Source: Algoriphagus limi (GTDB taxonomy: Bacteria > Bacteroidota > Bacteroidia > Cytophagales > Cyclobacteriaceae). From it: a stretch of 64,000 nucleotides of DNA. The position numbers and the translations under genes were made by a program. Shown in pieces: positions 53,190-62,530 of this stretch. Every line of letters starts with the position of its first letter. The stretch's first letter is position 1. The notes below the pieces were generated by a model that did not search any database, had not been told where the DNA came from, and was given only the letters and a program-made list of their open reading frames with translations. The stretch lies in NCBI RefSeq assembly GCF_024919275.1, contig NZ_JANWGH010000003.1:37677-101676 (forward strand). Direction: 5' to 3'.

Positions 53190-53264
53190 TGAAGATTTAA
53201 GTACCAAGTATCTGGTATCAAGAAGATGGAGGATTTGTTGAAGTCATCTATTTGTTTTAAAAGT

Positions 53265-54230
53265 ATGAAGCCCCGAGTTTTTATTGTTTTTCTGATTTGT
53301 CTTTTTCCTGTTTTTGGATTTTCGCAGGGAAAGAAGGTAGTGTTTATCATTTTGGATGGAATACCAGCGCCAGAATTGGAACGGGTTGAAACTCCTAATA
53401 TGGATGAGATAGCCAAAAAAGGAGGCTATTCCAGAGCCTTTACCGGAGGGGAAAGGGGTGGAGAATCCGAGACTCCAACCATTTCTGCCGTAGGATACAA
53501 CTCACTGCTAACTGGGACTTGGGCCAATAAACACAATGTTTGGGATAATGATATTGAGTCTCCTGATTATGCTTATTGGTCTGTTTTTAGACTAATGCGT
53601 GAAGCCCGTCCAAAATCAAAACTAGCTATATTTTCTACCTGGGAAGATAATCGGACCAAACTCCTTGGCGAGGGATTGGGTGAAACAGGAAATTTGAAAT
53701 TGGATTTTGCTTTTGATGGTTTTGAAAAGGATACCTTGCGTTTCCCGCATGATTTGGAGAAGGGCTATATTCAGAAAATTGATAACCTTGTCTCTTACGA
53801 GGCAGCCCATATTTTGAAGAACCAAGCCCCCGATCTTTCTTGGGTTTATTTAGAATTTACTGATGATATGGGCCATAGTTTTGGAAAAAGCCCGCAATTG
53901 ACTGCAGCCATCGAATTGGCAGATCGTCAAGTAGGTAGAATCTGGGAAGCAATTGAGTTTAGGGAGAAAAACTTCGGGGAGGAATGGCTGATTTGGATTA
54001 CCACCGATCATGGCCGAAAAGCTCCCGACTACAAAGACCATGGAGGACAAAGTGATTCAGAAAGAGAAATCTGGATGGTAACTAACATCTCCAATCTAAG
54101 TGAAAAATTCTATTCAGGGAATGCCGCTATGGTGGATATTTTACCTACTCTGATTGATTTTATGGGAATTCCTGTTCCGGAAATGCAAAAGCAAAATTGG
54201 GATGGGACTTCCTTATTGCAGAAAAAATAA
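53265..54230 (+). CDS. Alkaline phosphatase-superfamily protein, secreted
   Basis: The ATG at 53265 (MKPRVFIVFLICLFPVFGFSQ) starts a signal peptide; the frame from 53226 is less apt. The 321 residues have the phosphodiesterase/nucleotide-pyrophosphatase layout: IILDGIPAPE (Asp ligand), SETPTISAVGYNSLLTG (Thr nucleophile), FTDDMGHSFG (D and H), WITTDHGRKA, DHGGQSDSE. It is the type-I phosphodiesterase group, substrate unknown. A second member of this superfamily, eboF, lies at 61160. It precedes a terminator shared with the M28 peptidase. Confidence 0.88.
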   Translation: MKPRVFIVFLICLFPVFGFSQGKKVVFIILDGIPAPELERVETPNMDEIAKKGGYSRAFTGGERGGESETPTISAVGYNSLLTGTWANKHNVWDNDIESPDYAYWSVFRLMREARPKSKLAIFSTWEDNRTKLLGEGLGETGNLKLDFAFDGFEKDTLRFPHDLEKGYIQKIDNLVSYEAAHILKNQAPDLSWVYLEFTDDMGHSFGKSPQLTAAIELADRQVGRIWEAIEFREKNFGEEWLIWITTDHGRKAPDYKDHGGQSDSEREIWMVTNISNLSEKFYSGNAAMVDILPTLIDFMGIPVPEMQKQNWDGTSLLQKK

Positions 54231-56001: not shown

Positions 56002-56889
56002 ATGAACCCAAAATCAGAGCTTTTAGCCTTTTTAAAAGCAATCATTCATAATAATGCAGAAGAAAAGTCTTTGAATTGGCTGGATGAAAAGGCTCAAAAA
56101 ATCCAAGATTCAAAATCAAAAAATGCCTTTTATCTCGCTTTTTCGCAGGCTTCTCGCTTTTTTTCAAAAGACAATCTTCAACTAGATTCTGAAGCAAAAC
56201 AAAAAGCAGATACGCTGATAGCTGGATTTCAGCCTGAGTTTTGGAATGTTCTTCAAACAGCCAGAACTTACCTTTTGCTTCATTTTTCTTTGGAAAAAGA
56301 CGAGTGGTTGAAAGCTATTAATCAGCTTTTTGAAACCGGTGATTTGTATGAGCAACAGGCACTTTATGCTTCCTTGTCTTTGATGCCTTTTTCTGAAGAA
56401 ATGCTTCCAAGAGCGATTGAAGGATGTCGTACCAACATGACCTTGGTTTTTGATGCCATTGCCTTGAATAATCCCTATGCTCCCAAACATTTCCCTGAGC
56501 TAAATTGGAATCAGATGGTATTAAAGGCGGTCTTTATGCAAAGACCACTTTACAGAATACAGCAATTGGAGCTGCGAAGGAATCCCGCCTTGGCGGAAAT
56601 CGCCTCAGATTTTGCGCATGAGCGTTGGGCTGCAGGACGTAATGTGATGCCAGAACTTTGGAGGTTGGTTTCTCCATTCGTGAATGAAAAGTTTATGGGA
56701 GATCTGGAAAAAGTGATGAGCTCAGAAGATTTGCTCGAACAAAAAGGAGGTGCTTTGGCACTTTATCATTCAGATTTTGCTCAAGCAAAAGAATTATTAA
56801 ATAAATACCCCGAATTGATTCAGGAGATCGAGAAAGGAGCAATTTCTTGGGAAGAAATCGGTCAGGAATATCAAGATACGAGAGTCTAA
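56002..56889 (+). CDS. eboA: EboA, first gene of the ebo cluster
   Basis: EboA is a helical protein of unknown biochemical function. The 295 residues are predicted all-alpha with no signal peptide or membrane span; recurring helix pairs (LYEQQALYASLSLMPFSEEM, EEKSLNWLDEKAQ) resemble a repeat-type scaffold. The call rests on order and the five downstream genes as much as on sequence. A short terminator-like hairpin (TCCTT-GAA-AAGGA, then T6) lies at about 55932-55957 upstream, followed by a weak promoter-like phrase (TTTG at 55955, TACCTATT at 55976). It is 42 bases before eboB. Confidence 0.9.
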   Translation: MNPKSELLAFLKAIIHNNAEEKSLNWLDEKAQKIQDSKSKNAFYLAFSQASRFFSKDNLQLDSEAKQKADTLIAGFQPEFWNVLQTARTYLLLHFSLEKDEWLKAINQLFETGDLYEQQALYASLSLMPFSEEMLPRAIEGCRTNMTLVFDAIALNNPYAPKHFPELNWNQMVLKAVFMQRPLYRIQQLELRRNPALAEIASDFAHERWAAGRNVMPELWRLVSPFVNEKFMGDLEKVMSSEDLLEQKGGALALYHSDFAQAKELLNKYPELIQEIEKGAISWEEIGQEYQDTRV

Positions 56890-56931
56890 AGCTAGACTAC
56901 AAAAAATTAGTAAACTCAAAATAGTATTAAT

Positions 56932-57843
56932 ATGCCCATGTATATAGACCCCCATATTCATTTAGTCTCCCGAACTACGGATGACTATGAAGCCATGCAC
57001 AAGGCGGGGATAGTTGCCACGATCGAGCCTGCCTTTTGGTTGGGTCAGCCTCGTACGGAAGTTGGAAGTTTCAAGGATTATTTCAGCACTTTGGTTGGTT
57101 GGGAGCGTTTTCGAGCCAGTCAGTTCGGGATTGTTCACTACTGCACCATGGGATTGAATAGTAAAGAGGCGAATAATATTCCTTTGGCAGAGCAGGTGAT
57201 GGAATTGCTTCCTCTTTATGTAGGAAAAGAAGGGGTGGTTGCCATCGGTGAGATTGGATATGATGATCAAACTGAGGCCGAAGACCGATTCTATCGAGTG
57301 CAATTAGAATTAGCGAAAGAGGTGGATTTACCGGTGCTTATCCACACCCCACATCGGGATAAAAAGCGTGGAACAACCCGCTCCATGGACGTAGCTGAAG
57401 AACACGGAATGGATCCGGGATGGATTATCGTGGATCATAATAATGAAGAAACCGTGAAGGAAGTGTTGGATCGGGGATATTGGGCTGGGTTCACAATTTA
57501 TCCGCATACCAAAATGGGTTCCGAGCGTATGGTTGAAATCGTCAAGCAGTATGGCCCTGAACGCATTATTGTCAATTCCGCAGCGGATTGGGGAATTTCA
57601 GATCCATTGGCAGTCCCTAAGACGGCCGATTTGATGCGAAAAATGGGTATTCCTGAGGAGCATGTTCAGATGGTTACCTATAAAAATGCACTTGCAGCTT
57701 TTTCAATTTCAGGCCAAATGCATGAGGATGACTGGTTGAAAGCTCCTCCTATTGATCAAACCAAAAAAATGAGTGGTAATTCTGTGCTTCGTGGAGGCCA
57801 AGTGCCACGAGTAGAGGGGCCATCCGACCGAGTAGAAAATTAA
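56932..57843 (+). CDS. eboB: EboB, TatD-like metal-dependent hydrolase
   Basis: The 303 residues fold as a TIM-barrel amidohydrolase with the TatD metal ligands H8-x-H10, E107 (GEIGYD), H138 (LIHTPH), H169 (VDHN) and D219 (AADW). TatD proteins are nucleases or hydrolases; in ebo clusters this member is named EboB and its substrate is unknown. All metal ligands are intact, so it is probably active. It is followed 3 bases later by eboC. Confidence 0.92.
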   Translation: MPMYIDPHIHLVSRTTDDYEAMHKAGIVATIEPAFWLGQPRTEVGSFKDYFSTLVGWERFRASQFGIVHYCTMGLNSKEANNIPLAEQVMELLPLYVGKEGVVAIGEIGYDDQTEAEDRFYRVQLELAKEVDLPVLIHTPHRDKKRGTTRSMDVAEEHGMDPGWIIVDHNNEETVKEVLDRGYWAGFTIYPHTKMGSERMVEIVKQYGPERIIVNSAADWGISDPLAVPKTADLMRKMGIPEEHVQMVTYKNALAAFSISGQMHEDDWLKAPPIDQTKKMSGNSVLRGGQVPRVEGPSDRVEN

Positions 57844-57846
57844 TCC

Positions 57847-58755
57847 ATGAAGGGAAAGCTTTTTGCTTATTTGCAAATTACCCGTCCTGCTAATGTGGTC
57901 ACAGCTGTGGCCGATGTCTGGGCGGGTTTTGCTATTGCTGGTGGCTGGAGCTATTTAATTTCGACCTGGAAAGACGGATCCGGATTTTGGATTAATCTCT
58001 TGTGGCTTTCCATCAGTACGATTGGCTTGTATGGAGGCGGAGTCGCATTTAATGATATTGCAGATGCGGAATTGGATGCGGTGGAGCGTCCGGAACGTCC
58101 TATACCTAGTGGCCGAGCAAAAAAATCCACAGCTATTATTGTAGCTAGTCTTCTCTTGTTTTTTGGGGTTTTGGCAGCTTTTCAGGTTAATCACCTTGCA
58201 GGAATTTTAGCCATAGTGATTAGCCTTTGCGCCCTAACCTATGATTACTGGGGAAAGCATCAAAACATCTTTGGCCCTATTAACATGGGGCTTTGCCGTG
58301 CTGGGAACCTATTGCTTGGAGTGGCTGTGGCGCCGGAAGTTTTGGAGAAAGTAGGGCCGATTGGAATACTTCCTTTGATCTATGTGGCGGCGATCACCAT
58401 GGTGAGTCGGGGAGAAGTGCATGGAAAAAATAGACGAGCTCTCTTCGCAGGATTGGGGATGTATGCTGTCATAGTGATTGGAATATTTCTTTTAGCCAAA
58501 ATTCAGGGGCCAAATTATTGGCATGTAATCCCCTTTTTAGCCTTGCTTTCTTATATGATTTTTCCACCGCTTATCAGAGCTATTCAAACTGAATCCCCAC
58601 AATTAATCGGAAAATCGGTCAAAGCTGCCGTAATTTCTCTCATCATCGTGAATGCGTCTTTAGGTGCAGCCTTTGAAAGCTGGGAGATAGGATTGGTTGT
58701 TTTGGCCTTATTACCCTTATCTTTGATTCTGGCCAAAGCCTTTGCTGTCACCTAG
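57847..58755 (+). CDS. eboC: EboC, UbiA-family prenyltransferase
   Basis: A polytopic membrane protein of 302 residues (about 8-9 spans) with the UbiA first Asp-rich motif N69-D70-xx-D73-xxx-D77, followed by ERPERPIPSGR. The second motif is reduced to YDYWGK near residue 135, without the usual DxxxD. UbiA enzymes join a prenyl chain to an acceptor in the membrane. Loss of the second acidic motif is worth checking before assuming normal activity. It overlaps a longer eboD frame but the preferred eboD start lies 49 bases beyond. Confidence 0.92.
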   Translation: MKGKLFAYLQITRPANVVTAVADVWAGFAIAGGWSYLISTWKDGSGFWINLLWLSISTIGLYGGGVAFNDIADAELDAVERPERPIPSGRAKKSTAIIVASLLLFFGVLAAFQVNHLAGILAIVISLCALTYDYWGKHQNIFGPINMGLCRAGNLLLGVAVAPEVLEKVGPIGILPLIYVAAITMVSRGEVHGKNRRALFAGLGMYAVIVIGIFLLAKIQGPNYWHVIPFLALLSYMIFPPLIRAIQTESPQLIGKSVKAAVISLIIVNASLGAAFESWEIGLVVLALLPLSLILAKAFAVT

Positions 58756-58804
58756 ATTTTGGCTTAAAAAGAAACTTTCACGGCCAAAGACCAATTATTT
58801 CCAT

Positions 58805-59953
58805 ATGGATACTATTCTTCAGCAGTCCTTTTCGGTTTCTTTCAATTATCCGGTTTGCTTTACGGAAAATCTATTTTCTGCTGAAAATCCAGTTTTTGTT
58901 AACGTCTTAGAAAAAGGAAAGAAGGTAAAGACCTTTTTTGTAGTTGATAGCGGGGTGGTTGAGGCTTTTCCAAATTTATTGGAAGAAATAAAGACTTACG
59001 CTTCACATCATAAAGAGCGATTCTTTCTGTGCGCAGACCCATTGGTAGTACCGGGTGGAGAAGCTTGTAAAAATGATCCAACCATTTACCAGCAAGTAGT
59101 TCAGGCCACAAATGACTTTGGGATTGATAGACATTCTTACATCGTCGCGATTGGTGGAGGAGCTGTTTTGGATATGGTTGGTTTCGCAGCTGCCATTTCC
59201 CACCGAGGGATTCGTTTGATCCGAATTCCAACGACTGTTTTATCCCAAAATGACTCAGGTGTAGGTGTAAAAAACAGTATCAACTACTTCGGGAAGAAAA
59301 ATTACCTAGGAACCTTCACTACTCCGATTGCTGTATTAAATGACTTCAATTTCCTCCAAACATTGGATGATCGTGATTGGAGATCTGGAATTTCAGAGGC
59401 TTTAAAAGTGGCTTTGATTAAGGATTTGGACTTTTTCGAATGGTTGGAAGCTAATGCTTCAGACATGGCGAGACGGCAAATCGAGCCGATGAAAACACAA
59501 ATAATCCGATGTGCCCAAATGCATATGGATCATATTGCGGGAAGAGATCCATTTGAGTTTGGGTCTTCCCGTCCCTTGGATTTTGGTCATTGGGCCGCTC
59601 ATAAATTGGAGCATCTCAGCGAGTATCGCGTGCGGCATGGGGAGGCTGTTGCCATCGGGATTGCATTGGATTCTACCTATTCCCACCTCTTGGGCTGGAT
59701 TAGTCATGATGATTTGAATCGAATTTTACAGGTAATTCAGACTTTAGGCTTTTCACTTTACGAACCGGAACTTTCAGGAGAAAATTTAATTCAGGGGCTT
59801 CGGGAATTCCAGGAGCATCTAGGCGGTGAGTTGACCATCATGCTGCTAGAAAAGCTTGGAAAAGGAGTTGAGGTGCATGAAATGGATGAAGAGTTAATTC
59901 GAAAGGCAATTGAATTTTTAAAGGAGAAAAGCCAAGAACCAAAGCTGATTTAA
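58805..59953 (+). CDS. eboD: EboD, 3-dehydroquinate synthase-like cyclase
   Basis: The ATG at 58805 (MDTILQQSFSVSFNY) gives 382 residues; a TTG start at 58742 would overlap eboC by 14 bases. It belongs to the sugar-phosphate cyclase superfamily: AIGGGAVLDMVGFAAAISHRG, PTTVLSQNDSGVGVKNSIN, and zinc ligands in GISEALK (Glu), DFGHWAAHKLE (His) and RHGEAVAIG (His). The DSSVGGK motif of AroB is altered to DSGVGVK, and ebo members form a group separate from AroB. The product is probably a cyclised sugar or cyclitol, not necessarily dehydroquinate. Confidence 0.9.
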   Translation: MDTILQQSFSVSFNYPVCFTENLFSAENPVFVNVLEKGKKVKTFFVVDSGVVEAFPNLLEEIKTYASHHKERFFLCADPLVVPGGEACKNDPTIYQQVVQATNDFGIDRHSYIVAIGGGAVLDMVGFAAAISHRGIRLIRIPTTVLSQNDSGVGVKNSINYFGKKNYLGTFTTPIAVLNDFNFLQTLDDRDWRSGISEALKVALIKDLDFFEWLEANASDMARRQIEPMKTQIIRCAQMHMDHIAGRDPFEFGSSRPLDFGHWAAHKLEHLSEYRVRHGEAVAIGIALDSTYSHLLGWISHDDLNRILQVIQTLGFSLYEPELSGENLIQGLREFQEHLGGELTIMLLEKLGKGVEVHEMDEELIRKAIEFLKEKSQEPKLI

Positions 59954-59955
59954 GC

Positions 59956-61158
59956 ATGCAAGTTGGACACTTTCAATTCAGTTATTGCAGTAATATTCAC
60001 CCCGGTGAAAGTTGGGAAGCAACCTTCGAAAATTTAAAATCCTACATTCCTCAAATCAGAGAAAACCTTCAATGGAAGGGGGCATTTGGGATAGGCTTAA
60101 GACTTTCCAACGAAGCGAGTTTGGAACTGGAAAAGAAGGATGAATTAGCCGCTTTTCAATCTTGGCTCGCTCAAGAAAACGCCTATGTTTTTACACTGAA
60201 TGGCTTTCCTTATGGAGATTTTCATCATACCCGGGTAAAAGATCAGGTTCACTTTCCTGACTGGACTACTGACGATCGAAAAAATTATACCATTCGATCA
60301 TTTCGAATTTTAGCCCAATTGCTACCCGATGGGATGAGTGGAGGGATTTCAACCTCACCTATTTCCTACCGACACTGGTTTAAAACTCCCGAAGAAAAGG
60401 ATGATGCAATGCAAAAAGCTACAGCCAATTTGATGGAAGTAGTAGCAGAGCTTGCGAAGATTCAAACCGAAACAGGGAAAACCTTGCATTTAGACATTGA
60501 ACCGGAGCCAGATGGAATTTTAGAGAATTCTGATGAGATGCTTTGGCTTTTTGATTCCTGGCTAATTCCCAAAGGAGCGCCGATTCTTTCTCAAAAGCTT
60601 GGAATTACCCTTTCTGAAGCTGAAATATTGATTCTGGAGCATATCCAAGTATGCTACGACGTTTGCCACTTTGCAATTGTTTATGAGCATCCGGCAAACA
60701 CTTTTTCCAAATTCAATAATGCCGGAATTAAAATAGGCAAGATCCAAATTTCAGCTGCTTTGAAACTGGATTTGGGAGAAAATAGAGCTGAAATTCAGCA
60801 GAAACTACTTCCCTTTGCTGAATCGACTTACCTGCATCAAGTGGTTGGTAGAAAGGCAGATGGAAGTCTTGTCTCCTATTCAGATTTGCCAGAGGCACTT
60901 GAGGCAATTCAAGATGCTGAGGAGAAGGAATGGCGAATTCACTTTCATGTACCGCTATTTGTAGAGTCTTATGGCCAGTTTTTTTCGACTCAAAGCAGTA
61001 TCTTAAATGTCTTGAGTGAATTAAGGAATCATCCTGAAATTACAGAGCATTTAGAAGTAGAAACCTACACTTGGGAGGTTTTGCCGGATGAAATGCGTTT
61101 GGAATTAGGTGAGTCAATAAGTCGGGAATTGGAATGGGTTCTTCAACGATTGGAGTAA
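59956..61158 (+). CDS. eboE: EboE, TIM-barrel metabolite-traffic protein
   Basis: The 400 residues look like a xylose-isomerase-type TIM barrel with no signal peptide: motifs NIHPGESWEATFENL, HLDIEPEPDGILE, CYDVCHFAI, GIKIGKIQISAALKL, WRIHFHVPLF. The pattern of Glu/Asp/His at strand ends is that of a sugar isomerase or epimerase, but no reaction is established. It lies 2 bases after eboD and 1 base before eboF. Confidence 0.9.
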   Translation: MQVGHFQFSYCSNIHPGESWEATFENLKSYIPQIRENLQWKGAFGIGLRLSNEASLELEKKDELAAFQSWLAQENAYVFTLNGFPYGDFHHTRVKDQVHFPDWTTDDRKNYTIRSFRILAQLLPDGMSGGISTSPISYRHWFKTPEEKDDAMQKATANLMEVVAELAKIQTETGKTLHLDIEPEPDGILENSDEMLWLFDSWLIPKGAPILSQKLGITLSEAEILILEHIQVCYDVCHFAIVYEHPANTFSKFNNAGIKIGKIQISAALKLDLGENRAEIQQKLLPFAESTYLHQVVGRKADGSLVSYSDLPEALEAIQDAEEKEWRIHFHVPLFVESYGQFFSTQSSILNVLSELRNHPEITEHLEVETYTWEVLPDEMRLELGESISRELEWVLQRLE

Positions 61159-61159
61159 G

Positions 61160-62530
61160 ATGAAAAAAACAGTTGTTCTAAATATCGTTGCATTGTCATC
61201 CAGAGTAATTGGGGAGAATACTCCTTTTCTCAGTGGATGGATTGCTAAGCAAAAAAAAGCTATTGTAGAGCCTGTTTTGCCAGCTGTAACCTGCTCGGCT
61301 CAATCTGTTTACCTAACCGGGAAAATGCCTTCCGAAAATGGAATTGTGGGAAATGGCTGGTATTTCAGGGATGAATGTGAAATTAAATTTTGGAGACAAT
61401 CCAATCGCTTGGTTCGGGCTCCAAAAATCTGGGATAAGTTAAAGACGGAAAATTCTGGCTTCACTTGTGCCAATATGTTTTGGTGGTACAATATGTATTC
61501 TTCGGTGGATTTAGCGGTGACGCCTCGCCCACTTTATCCTTCAGATGGGAGGAAATTGCCTGATTGTCACTCTCAGCCGATGGAATTACGGGATAGACTT
61601 CAAAATGAATTGGGTCAGTTTCCTCTTTTTTCCTTCTGGGGACCAAATGCTAATATTTCCTCTACCCAATGGATCGCCGAGGCCACCAAAAAGGTAGATC
61701 AATGGTATAACCCAACACTTAACTTGGTGTATTTACCCCATCTGGACTATGGGTTACAGAAGTATGGACTAGATTTTTCAAAAATCGGATCGCTTTTGAA
61801 GGAAGTAGATGAAGTAGCAAAAGATCTAATTACCTATTTTGAAAGTCAAGGAACCCAAGTTCTCTTGCTCTCTGAATATGGTATCACAAATGTCTCCCAA
61901 CCTATTCATATCAACCGCTTGCTCCGATCTGCGGGATGGATTCAGGTGAAGGATGAATTGGGCTTGGAAACTTTGGATGCAGGCACTTCTCAGGCTTTTG
62001 CGATCGCTGACCATCAAATTGCCCACGTGCATGTTCAAGATCCCGCGGTTTTTGATCAAGTAAAAAGTTTATTAGAAAATACTCCGGGGATTGAGTTGGT
62101 ACTTGACAAAAAGGCTCAGGCAAATTATGGTTTAGATCATCCTCGATCAGGAGATTTGGTAGTGGTAGCGGATAAGGACTCCTGGTTTACTTATTATTTC
62201 TGGTTGGATGATGAAAAAGCTCCAGATTATGCGCGATGTGTGGACATTCATCGAAAGCCCGGCTATGACCCGGTAGAATTATTTTTAGATCCTGCGATTA
62301 AAATTCCTTTGCTAAAAGTGGGGTCTAAGGTTTTGAAGAAAAAACTGGGATTCAGATATCTGATGGATGTAATTCCTCTAGATGCGACGCTAGTTAAAGG
62401 ATCACATGGTAGATTACCGGAGGAGGATGAAGACAAGCCGATTTTTGTGGGAAATACTAGCCTTCTGAATTCAGAAAAAATTCAACCTACAGACGTTTTT
62501 GATTTAATTTATCAGGCTGTCCAGGATTAA
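61160..62530 (+). CDS. eboF: EboF, alkaline-phosphatase-superfamily protein
   Basis: The 456 residues show a nucleotide-pyrophosphatase/phosphodiesterase type fold: PAVTCSAQSVYLTGK (Thr nucleophile region), YLPHLDYGLQKYG, VLLLSEYGITNV, and KGSHGRLPEEDEDKP for the C-terminal metal His. The first metal Asp motif is replaced by VLNIVALSSRVIG, so one ligand is not clear. The family is annotated as EboF or nucleotide pyrophosphatase. It ends 4 bases inside the opposing HD gene and closes the cluster. Confidence 0.88.
   Translation: MKKTVVLNIVALSSRVIGENTPFLSGWIAKQKKAIVEPVLPAVTCSAQSVYLTGKMPSENGIVGNGWYFRDECEIKFWRQSNRLVRAPKIWDKLKTENSGFTCANMFWWYNMYSSVDLAVTPRPLYPSDGRKLPDCHSQPMELRDRLQNELGQFPLFSFWGPNANISSTQWIAEATKKVDQWYNPTLNLVYLPHLDYGLQKYGLDFSKIGSLLKEVDEVAKDLITYFESQGTQVLLLSEYGITNVSQPIHINRLLRSAGWIQVKDELGLETLDAGTSQAFAIADHQIAHVHVQDPAVFDQVKSLLENTPGIELVLDKKAQANYGLDHPRSGDLVVVADKDSWFTYYFWLDDEKAPDYARCVDIHRKPGYDPVELFLDPAIKIPLLKVGSKVLKKKLGFRYLMDVIPLDATLVKGSHGRLPEEDEDKPIFVGNTSLLNSEKIQPTDVFDLIYQAVQD

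What the first reader, a model, noticed from the sequence alone, without database searches (positions are those of the whole stretch)
56002..62530. Complete six-gene ebo cluster (eboA-eboF) in a Bacteroidota chromosome
Six tightly spaced genes in one direction match the whole enigmatic ebo set: EboA, TatD-like EboB, UbiA-like EboC, AroB-like EboD, TIM-barrel EboE and phosphatase-fold EboF. The cluster is known from eustigmatophyte plastids, where it was named, and from cyanobacteria, where it is needed to move the scytonemin monomer to the periplasm. Its reaction series is unsolved. The gene set suggests that a cyclised sugar is made, prenylated in the membrane, and processed by a phosphatase-type enzyme. 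No pigment or scytonemin gene is nearby, so the exported compound here would be something else, perhaps a cyclitol-lipid carrier of general use.
Basis: partly seen in the sequence, partly recalled or inferred. Interest (0 to 1): 0.9.

Follow-up and report, generated by a model that had tools for sequence, protein, structure and literature searches.

The report
Six-gene ebo cluster in Algoriphagus
This is a complete, previously described 'ebo' gene set of unsolved chemistry in a Bacteroidota bacterium; comparison with relatives suggests that its first step makes an inositol-like ring that is then tied to a lipid tail.

Summary
In detail: six tightly spaced + strand genes at 56002-62530 form a complete eboA-F operon in an Algoriphagus close to A. 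kandeliae. My tests sharpen it. (1) EboD is not AroB: one clade (100/99) apart from 20 DHQS-side rows, with its own active-site signature in 48 of 48 rows. (2) In ebo-like clusters of Streptomyces, Gemmatirosa and haloarchaea, inositol-3-phosphate synthase (MIPS) stands where EboD would: of 49 plasmid records with an EboB relative at 40% identity or more, 15 have EboD within 15 kb, 31 MIPS, 0 both, 3 neither. This independently supports a cyclitol product, possibly inositol-like. 'Inositol' occurs in none of the three main ebo papers. (3) EboF has the phosphodiesterase fold, but 3 of 6 metal-ligand positions are replaced throughout the rows seen, so the 'phosphatase step' is doubtful. (4) EboC shows no second Asp-rich UbiA motif. 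(5) EboE is in 54 of 58 other same-genus genomes. The locus is a new member of a known kind; the MIPS variant makes the open question testable.

The parts
56002..56889 (+). eboA: all-alpha, repeat/solenoid-like protein without solved relative found
56932..57843 (+). eboB: metal-dependent hydrolase superfamily; most conserved protein of the set
   Evidence: PF01026; closest solved sequence is archaeal AF_1765, 3guw, E 8.4e-26, against 6.3e-8 for a TatD-related DNase; median identity 73.6% to cyanobacterial EboB (n=4)
57847..58755 (+). eboC: UbiA-superfamily prenyltransferase without a recognisable second Asp-rich motif
   Evidence: NF035940 392.8 bits; first motif in 51 of 51, second in 0 of 51 EboC by pattern
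58805..59953 (+). eboD: sugar phosphate cyclase of its own clade, not DHQS
   Evidence: tree (EboD clade 100/99); active-site signature
59956..61158 (+). eboE: xylose-isomerase-like TIM-barrel protein (fold assignment from the 2016 paper)
   Evidence: NF035939 TIM_EboE 510.5 bits; no solved relative by single-sequence search
61160..62530 (+). eboF: alkaline-phosphatase-superfamily fold with altered metal site

Best explanation
The locus is a bona fide ABCDEF-type ebo operon. Most likely it makes a membrane-anchored, prenylated cyclitol. EboD closes a sugar phosphate into a keto-cyclitol (inferred; not DHQ). EboE, a TIM-barrel isomerase-type protein, and EboB, a metallo-hydrolase, remodel the ring (inferred). 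EboC attaches a prenyl chain in the membrane (prenyl transfer by EboC homologs, on surrogate acceptors, is published). EboA and EboF bind or shape intermediates (inferred). By analogy with Nostoc, the lipid serves movement of small molecules across the inner membrane (a phenotype published there, untested here). Because MIPS replaces EboD in other ebo-like clusters, the ring is probably inositol-like, so EboD may use a hexose phosphate rather than sedoheptulose 7-phosphate.
For: Profiles and order. EboD clade 100/99, apart from the DHQS side including the host's own AroB, and on the side of ValA/5tpr. Signature in 48 of 48 EboD: seven catalytic or metal positions kept; DHQS K250->H (48), R264->S/A/V (30/17/1), N268->D (48). 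MIPS in place of EboD: annotated regions; cross-table (15 EboD, 31 MIPS, 0 both, 3 neither of 49 records). Gemmatirosa block EboE-EboB-EboF-EboC-MIPS-isomerase without an EboD hit. Ketogulonicigenium ebo carries two Gfo/Idh/MocA genes, one best matching IolG inositol 2-dehydrogenase at 1e-31, under its cut-off. Genus-wide retention 54 of 58. Export phenotype of each single ebo deletion made in Nostoc (five genes, not eboD): PMC6282210, parts 1-3 of 6 read.
Against: EboC homologs (one from A. machipongonensis) farnesylate quinolines; phenols and catechols gave no product, and no cyclitol acceptor is reported in the parts that I read (PMC9235831). The MIPS swap is seen in relatives, not in this genome, which has no MIPS match, and its 31 records include many near-identical Streptomyces. 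The MIPS-type clusters differ in more than MIPS: they carry an extra PF01261 gene; the Streptomyces prenyltransferase is SCO3242 family (348 bits) and under the EboC cut-off (99 of 250); the haloarchaeal one is under both cut-offs; and the haloarchaeal PF01261 proteins hit EboE only at 1.5e-4 and 1.7e-6. Their product could therefore differ. EboD groups with sedoheptulose-7-phosphate enzymes, which argues for a C7 ring; 2-deoxy-scyllo-inosose synthase was not in my tree. No lipid-linked scytonemin monomer was found in Nostoc.
Confidence: 0.5

Rival explanations
1. EboC is an aromatic (quinoline-type) prenyltransferase and the cluster makes or moves a farnesylated aromatic metabolite; EboD supplies a ring precursor.
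For: Heterologous Maribacter, Zobellia and Algoriphagus EboC farnesylated 8-hydroxyquinoline-2-carboxylic acid; 6 of 14 aromatic acceptors gave product for the Maribacter enzyme (PMC9235831).
Against: Surrogate substrates in membrane fractions; no quinoline gene recognised in the operon; 46 of 49 EboB-bearing plasmid records have a cyclitol cyclase of one of two families within 15 kb.
Confidence: 0.2
2. EboD is a sedoheptulose-7-phosphate cyclase and ebo makes a C7 isoprenoid-cyclitol secondary metabolite (the 2016 proposal), without a general carrier role.
For: EboD lies on the side of ValA and 5tpr in the tree; ValA shares Asp at the N268 position; Yurchenko 2016.
Against: H275 is His in 48 of 48 EboD but Pro in 4 of 4 rows of the ValA/5tpr group, of which two are near-identical; MIPS, a glucose-6-phosphate enzyme by established knowledge, takes its place; near-fixation in Algoriphagus is unusual for a secondary metabolite.
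Confidence: 0.2
3. EboF is an active phosphodiesterase or phosphatase with an unusual one-metal or re-built site.
For: Thr44 at the nucleophile position, Asp196 and His416 kept in 60 of 60 rows, Glu/Asp239 in 60 of 60; eukaryotic lineages keep eboF alone (PMC5133447 passages).
Against: D54->Val/Ala, H214->Gln (Leu in three of four haloarchaeal rows), H258->Tyr.
Confidence: 0.35
4. The Ebo proteins are mainly a membrane assembly organised by the repeat protein EboA (the 2018 TPR-scaffold idea).
For: The EboA model is all-helical and resembles alpha-solenoid repeats weakly.
Against: The other five belong to enzyme superfamilies; many of EboA's invariant residues are charged or polar, which would fit a ligand site; the haloarchaeal clusters have no annotated EboA (that gene table is incomplete by its own note).
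Confidence: 0.08

Closest known systems
ABCDEF-type ebo operon of Bacteroidetes, Cyanobacteria and eustigmatophyte plastids (Yurchenko 2016, PMC5133447)
   Same: All six genes, order and strand
   Different: Nothing structural that I found; another species
ebo cluster of Nostoc punctiforme (Klicki 2018, PMC6282210)
   Same: Homologous proteins; median identity of the window's six to cyanobacterial loci 41-74% (n=4-5, N. punctiforme itself not among them)
   Different: No scytonemin genes beside it here; eboD is inside the operon here
Ubi-297/EboC of Algoriphagus machipongonensis PR1 (PMC9235831)
   Same: Same genus, same gene family, ebo context
   Different: Activity not tested for this protein
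MIPS-type ebo-like clusters of Streptomyces, Gemmatirosa and haloarchaea (seen here)
   Same: EboB, EboF-like and EboC-like genes; EboE in the bacteria; EboA in Streptomyces
   Different: Inositol-3-phosphate synthase instead of EboD, an extra PF01261 gene, prenyltransferase of the SCO3242 type in Streptomyces

Membership tests
ebo operon (ABCDEF type) | six genes, this order, one strand | tested here: met
ebo operon (ABCDEF type) | EboA subfamily model NF035937 over its cut-off | tested here: not met
   244.9 against 320 bits; the EboA domain model NF035938 is met (174.6 against 50)
ebo operon (ABCDEF type) | EboC and EboE equivalog models | tested here: met
   392.8/250 and 510.5/250 bits
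ebo operon (ABCDEF type) | needed for movement of a metabolite to the periplasm | not testable with these tools
   shown in Nostoc (PMC6282210)
3-dehydroquinate synthase (AroB) | falls in the DHQS clade | tested here: not met
   EboD clade 100/99, own AroB elsewhere
3-dehydroquinate synthase (AroB) | K250, R264, N268 (DHQS numbering recalled, placed by motif) | tested here: not met
   0 of 48 EboD against 20 of 20 DHQS-side rows
sugar phosphate cyclase superfamily | metal and catalytic positions kept | tested here: met
   D146, K152, N162, E194, K197, H271, H287 positions invariant in 48 of 48
Type I phosphodiesterase (PF01663) | fold and Pfam cut-off | tested here: met
Type I phosphodiesterase (PF01663) | six metal ligands of the two-metal site (names recalled) | tested here: not met
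   3 positions replaced, 1 conservatively changed, 2 kept
UbiA prenyltransferases | first Asp-rich motif | tested here: met
   51 of 51 EboC
UbiA prenyltransferases | second Asp-rich motif | tested here: not met
   0 of 51 by a crude pattern; gap in the alignment against one canonical host relative, the only control
TatD DNase | NCBI TatD subfamily TIGR00010 cut-off | tested here: not met
   40.1 against 206 bits; Pfam PF01026 is over its cut-off, 62.2 against 27
HEAT/TPR repeat proteins | EboA shares the repeat fold | tested here: inconclusive

The most novel reading that the evidence does not exclude
Ebo is one variant of a pathway spread over bacteria and archaea for a prenylated inositol-type lipid. 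The ring is made either by EboD, a hexose-phosphate cyclase with a third active-site type beside DHQS and the sedoheptulose cyclases, or by a dedicated inositol-3-phosphate synthase. EboC works without the second metal motif and EboF is a re-purposed phosphodiesterase fold. In Algoriphagus it is a near-core lipid, not a secondary metabolite.
Probability: 0.3. Interest if true: 0.8.

Novelty: new member of a known kind. Interest (0 to 1): 0.5.

Why it matters
The chemistry of ebo has been open since 2016 although the genes are spread over many phyla and algal plastids. A cyclase step that two different enzyme families seem able to fill names concrete substrates (glucose 6-phosphate, inositol phosphate) to feed to EboD and EboC. 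An altered EboF site tells experimenters not to assume a phosphatase. Algoriphagus, where ebo is nearly fixed and an EboC homolog has already been made in E. coli, is a convenient place to test it.

Tried and rejected
Rejected: EboD as a second AroB. A cargo gene beside the window's ebo: the flanks (M28 peptidase, second PF01663 enzyme, HD and YitT genes) are syntenic only in part of Algoriphagus. PF12902 ferritin-like genes lie beside ebo in several taxa but are not enriched in ebo+ Bacteroidota (2 of 35 against 15 of 357, p 0.66). ScyE_fam over the cut-off looks enriched (7 of 35 against 13 of 357, p 0.0008), but relatedness is not corrected for, only 18 of the 20 positive genomes could be named from the cut list (the other two were counted as ebo-negative), and the own genome has none over the cut-off. 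The first Verrucomicrobiota neighbourhood script called wrong ORFs in GC-rich DNA; replaced. EboA fold search gave no match at E<=0.001; this does not show a new fold. EboE by single sequence against PDB: only a hit at E 0.47. The third homologous-protein search was not used. I ran no promoter or terminator scan.

Dropped rows: 14 listed EboB records under 40% identity, and 3 of 66 that were never listed, were left out; the EboD and MIPS tables listed 60 of 110 and 60 of 121 records, and a record outside them counts as lacking (the three 'neither' records were checked directly: no EboD or MIPS in the 16-18 kb held). One Deinococcus record with EboD and a TatD-family gene beside it is not among the 49, because its EboB was not in the listings. 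In one search, 17 loci (Algoriphagus and one Nostoc) and rows covering under 300 model positions were left out; own AroB is there twice (L028, L184); L181 and L185 are long branches. In one search, partial L117 was left out of the EboF tally; 3 of 60 rows have no letter at position 10.
Full report
WHAT IS THERE. Six + strand ORFs at 56002-62530, 1 to 49 bases apart, match EboA to EboF. The EboA subfamily cut-off is missed but the EboA domain cut-off is passed. EboE is found in 54 of 58 other genomes of the genus (of the four misses two are 67% and 76% complete), in 0 of 5 sampled genomes of other genera of the family, in 35 of 392 sampled Bacteroidota, 92 of 240 sampled genomes of the phylum of L025 (Verrucomicrobiota; 90 over the cut-off) and 9 of 194 of the phylum of L015 (Cyanobacteria). 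So the set is near-core in this genus and patchy elsewhere.

WHAT IS PUBLISHED. Yurchenko 2016 (PMC5133447; outline, section 3.2 part 1, sections 3.4 and 3.7, and passages) named the operon, called ABCDEF ancestral in Bacteroidetes, placed EboD as a new sugar phosphate cyclase clade and proposed an isoprenoid-cyclitol. Klicki 2018 (PMC6282210; [quoted passage not shown] The Ubi-297 paper (PMC9235831; parts 1-2 of 4 and passages) assayed EboC of Maribacter, Zobellia and Algoriphagus machipongonensis. Of PMC6092422 and PMC4426668 I saw passages only.

EBOD. In a tree of 72 rows EboD (48 rows) is one clade (100/99), with ValA, 5tpr and two cyanobacterial cyclases on its side of a 100/99 branch and 20 DHQS-side rows (18 genome rows, the host's own AroB among them twice, and two solved DHQS) on the other. 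At the positions that in DHQS are K250, R264 and N268 (A. nidulans numbering recalled, placed by motif) all 20 DHQS-side rows have K, R, N, and EboD has H (48 of 48), S/A/V (30/17/1) and D (48 of 48). The ValA/5tpr group has M/Y, D/R and A/D there (3 and 1 rows each). The position of H275 is His in 48 of 48 EboD but Pro in 4 of 4 rows of that group, two of which are near-identical. Seven metal or catalytic positions are kept in 48 of 48. EboD thus looks like an active cyclase of a third kind. That K250 and R264 bind the DAHP carboxylate is recalled.

THE MIPS SWAP. Searching plasmid records with EboE and EboB led to annotated neighbourhoods. In Deinococcus, Ketogulonicigenium, Mycetohabitans, Aureibacter, Roseivivax and Salipiger the clusters hold a '3-dehydroquinate synthase', which the EboD search matches at 46-55% identity. 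In Streptomyces and in the haloarchaea Halocatena, Halobaculum and Natronococcus an annotated inositol-3-phosphate synthase stands in the cluster instead (the Streptomyces one checked: PF07994/PF01658; the haloarchaeal ones about 45% identical to it), with additional PF01261 isomerase-type genes. Gemmatirosa has EboE-EboB-EboF-EboC-MIPS-isomerase in one block and no EboD hit. In 49 plasmid records with an EboB relative at 40% identity or more, 15 have EboD within 15 kb, 31 MIPS, 0 both and 3 neither; 8 genera stand on the EboD side, 7 on the MIPS side. Many Streptomyces records are near-copies, so the independent weight is the genera. Of the 34 records holding a MIPS at 44% or more to the Streptomyces one, 31 are in that table, one Streptomyces (AMCC400023) has EboE within 5 kb, and two Halomarina records are not ebo neighbours as far as seen (one opened, L223, has no ebo hit). 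One Haladaptatus cluster has F, B, isomerase, C, isomerase and neither cyclase nearby. Against a plain swap: the Streptomyces prenyltransferase is of the SCO3242 family and under the EboC cut-off, the haloarchaeal one is under both cut-offs, and the haloarchaea have no EboE over its cut-off among the two proteins scanned. The word 'inositol' occurs 0 times in the held texts of the three ebo papers. Searches listed no paper that joins ebo and inositol synthase, but only open-licence papers are held, and searches listed 25 of 145 and 25 of 98. I recall, without a call, that a similar gene pair (SCO3242/SCO3243) lies in the calcium-dependent antibiotic cluster.

OTHER PROTEINS. EboB is the most conserved (median identity 89% to other Algoriphagus, 70% to other Bacteroidota, 74% to Cyanobacteria; EboA 57, 38, 41%) and its closest solved sequence is archaeal AF_1765. 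EboC keeps the first Asp-rich motif in 51 of 51 and shows no second one in 51 by a crude pattern; the alignment control was one canonical host relative. EboA is confidently modelled as all-helical with no clear solved relative; many invariant residues are charged or polar, which would fit a ligand site. EboE has no solved relative by single sequence.

MECHANISM. Shown here: gene content, clade, signatures, swap in relatives. Published elsewhere: prenyl transfer by EboC homologs; export phenotype in Nostoc. Inferred: cyclitol product, order of steps, lipid carrier role, C6 ring. Against the C6 reading stands EboD's place next to sedoheptulose-7-phosphate enzymes; for it stands MIPS, which by established knowledge uses glucose 6-phosphate.

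Noticed in passing
L212:4051-7069, L213:1043-4103, L226:10140-13421; G087 contig 2 near 1464562: A PF12902 ferritin-like gene (in the three loci with a 587-662 aa protein without Pfam hit beside it) lies next to ebo genes in Mycetohabitans, Aureibacter, Gloeothece (there EboB and EboD) and another Bacteroidota genome; a possible cargo pathway.
   Followed up: partly
L219:3087-4289, L220:2871-4070: ScyD/ScyE family genes stand directly before the MIPS-type ebo clusters of two Streptomyces plasmids (one scanned), as ebo and scyE go together in cyanobacteria.
   Followed up: partly
L211:4786-6832: Two Gfo/Idh/MocA oxidoreductases, one nearest to inositol 2-dehydrogenase IolG, precede eboD in Ketogulonicigenium.
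   Followed up: partly
L144-L163: Verrucomicrobiota carry many reduced or reshuffled ebo sets (E alone or with D, C, F, B in varying order; no EboA hit in these 20 loci), and a divergent, lower-scoring EboF type in some.
   Followed up: partly
window 53226-54230: A second PF01663 enzyme with the usual ligand pattern by eye lies 1.8 kb upstream of ebo.
   Followed up: no
window 62527-62530: The stop ends of eboF and the convergent HD-domain gene overlap by 4 bases.
   Followed up: no
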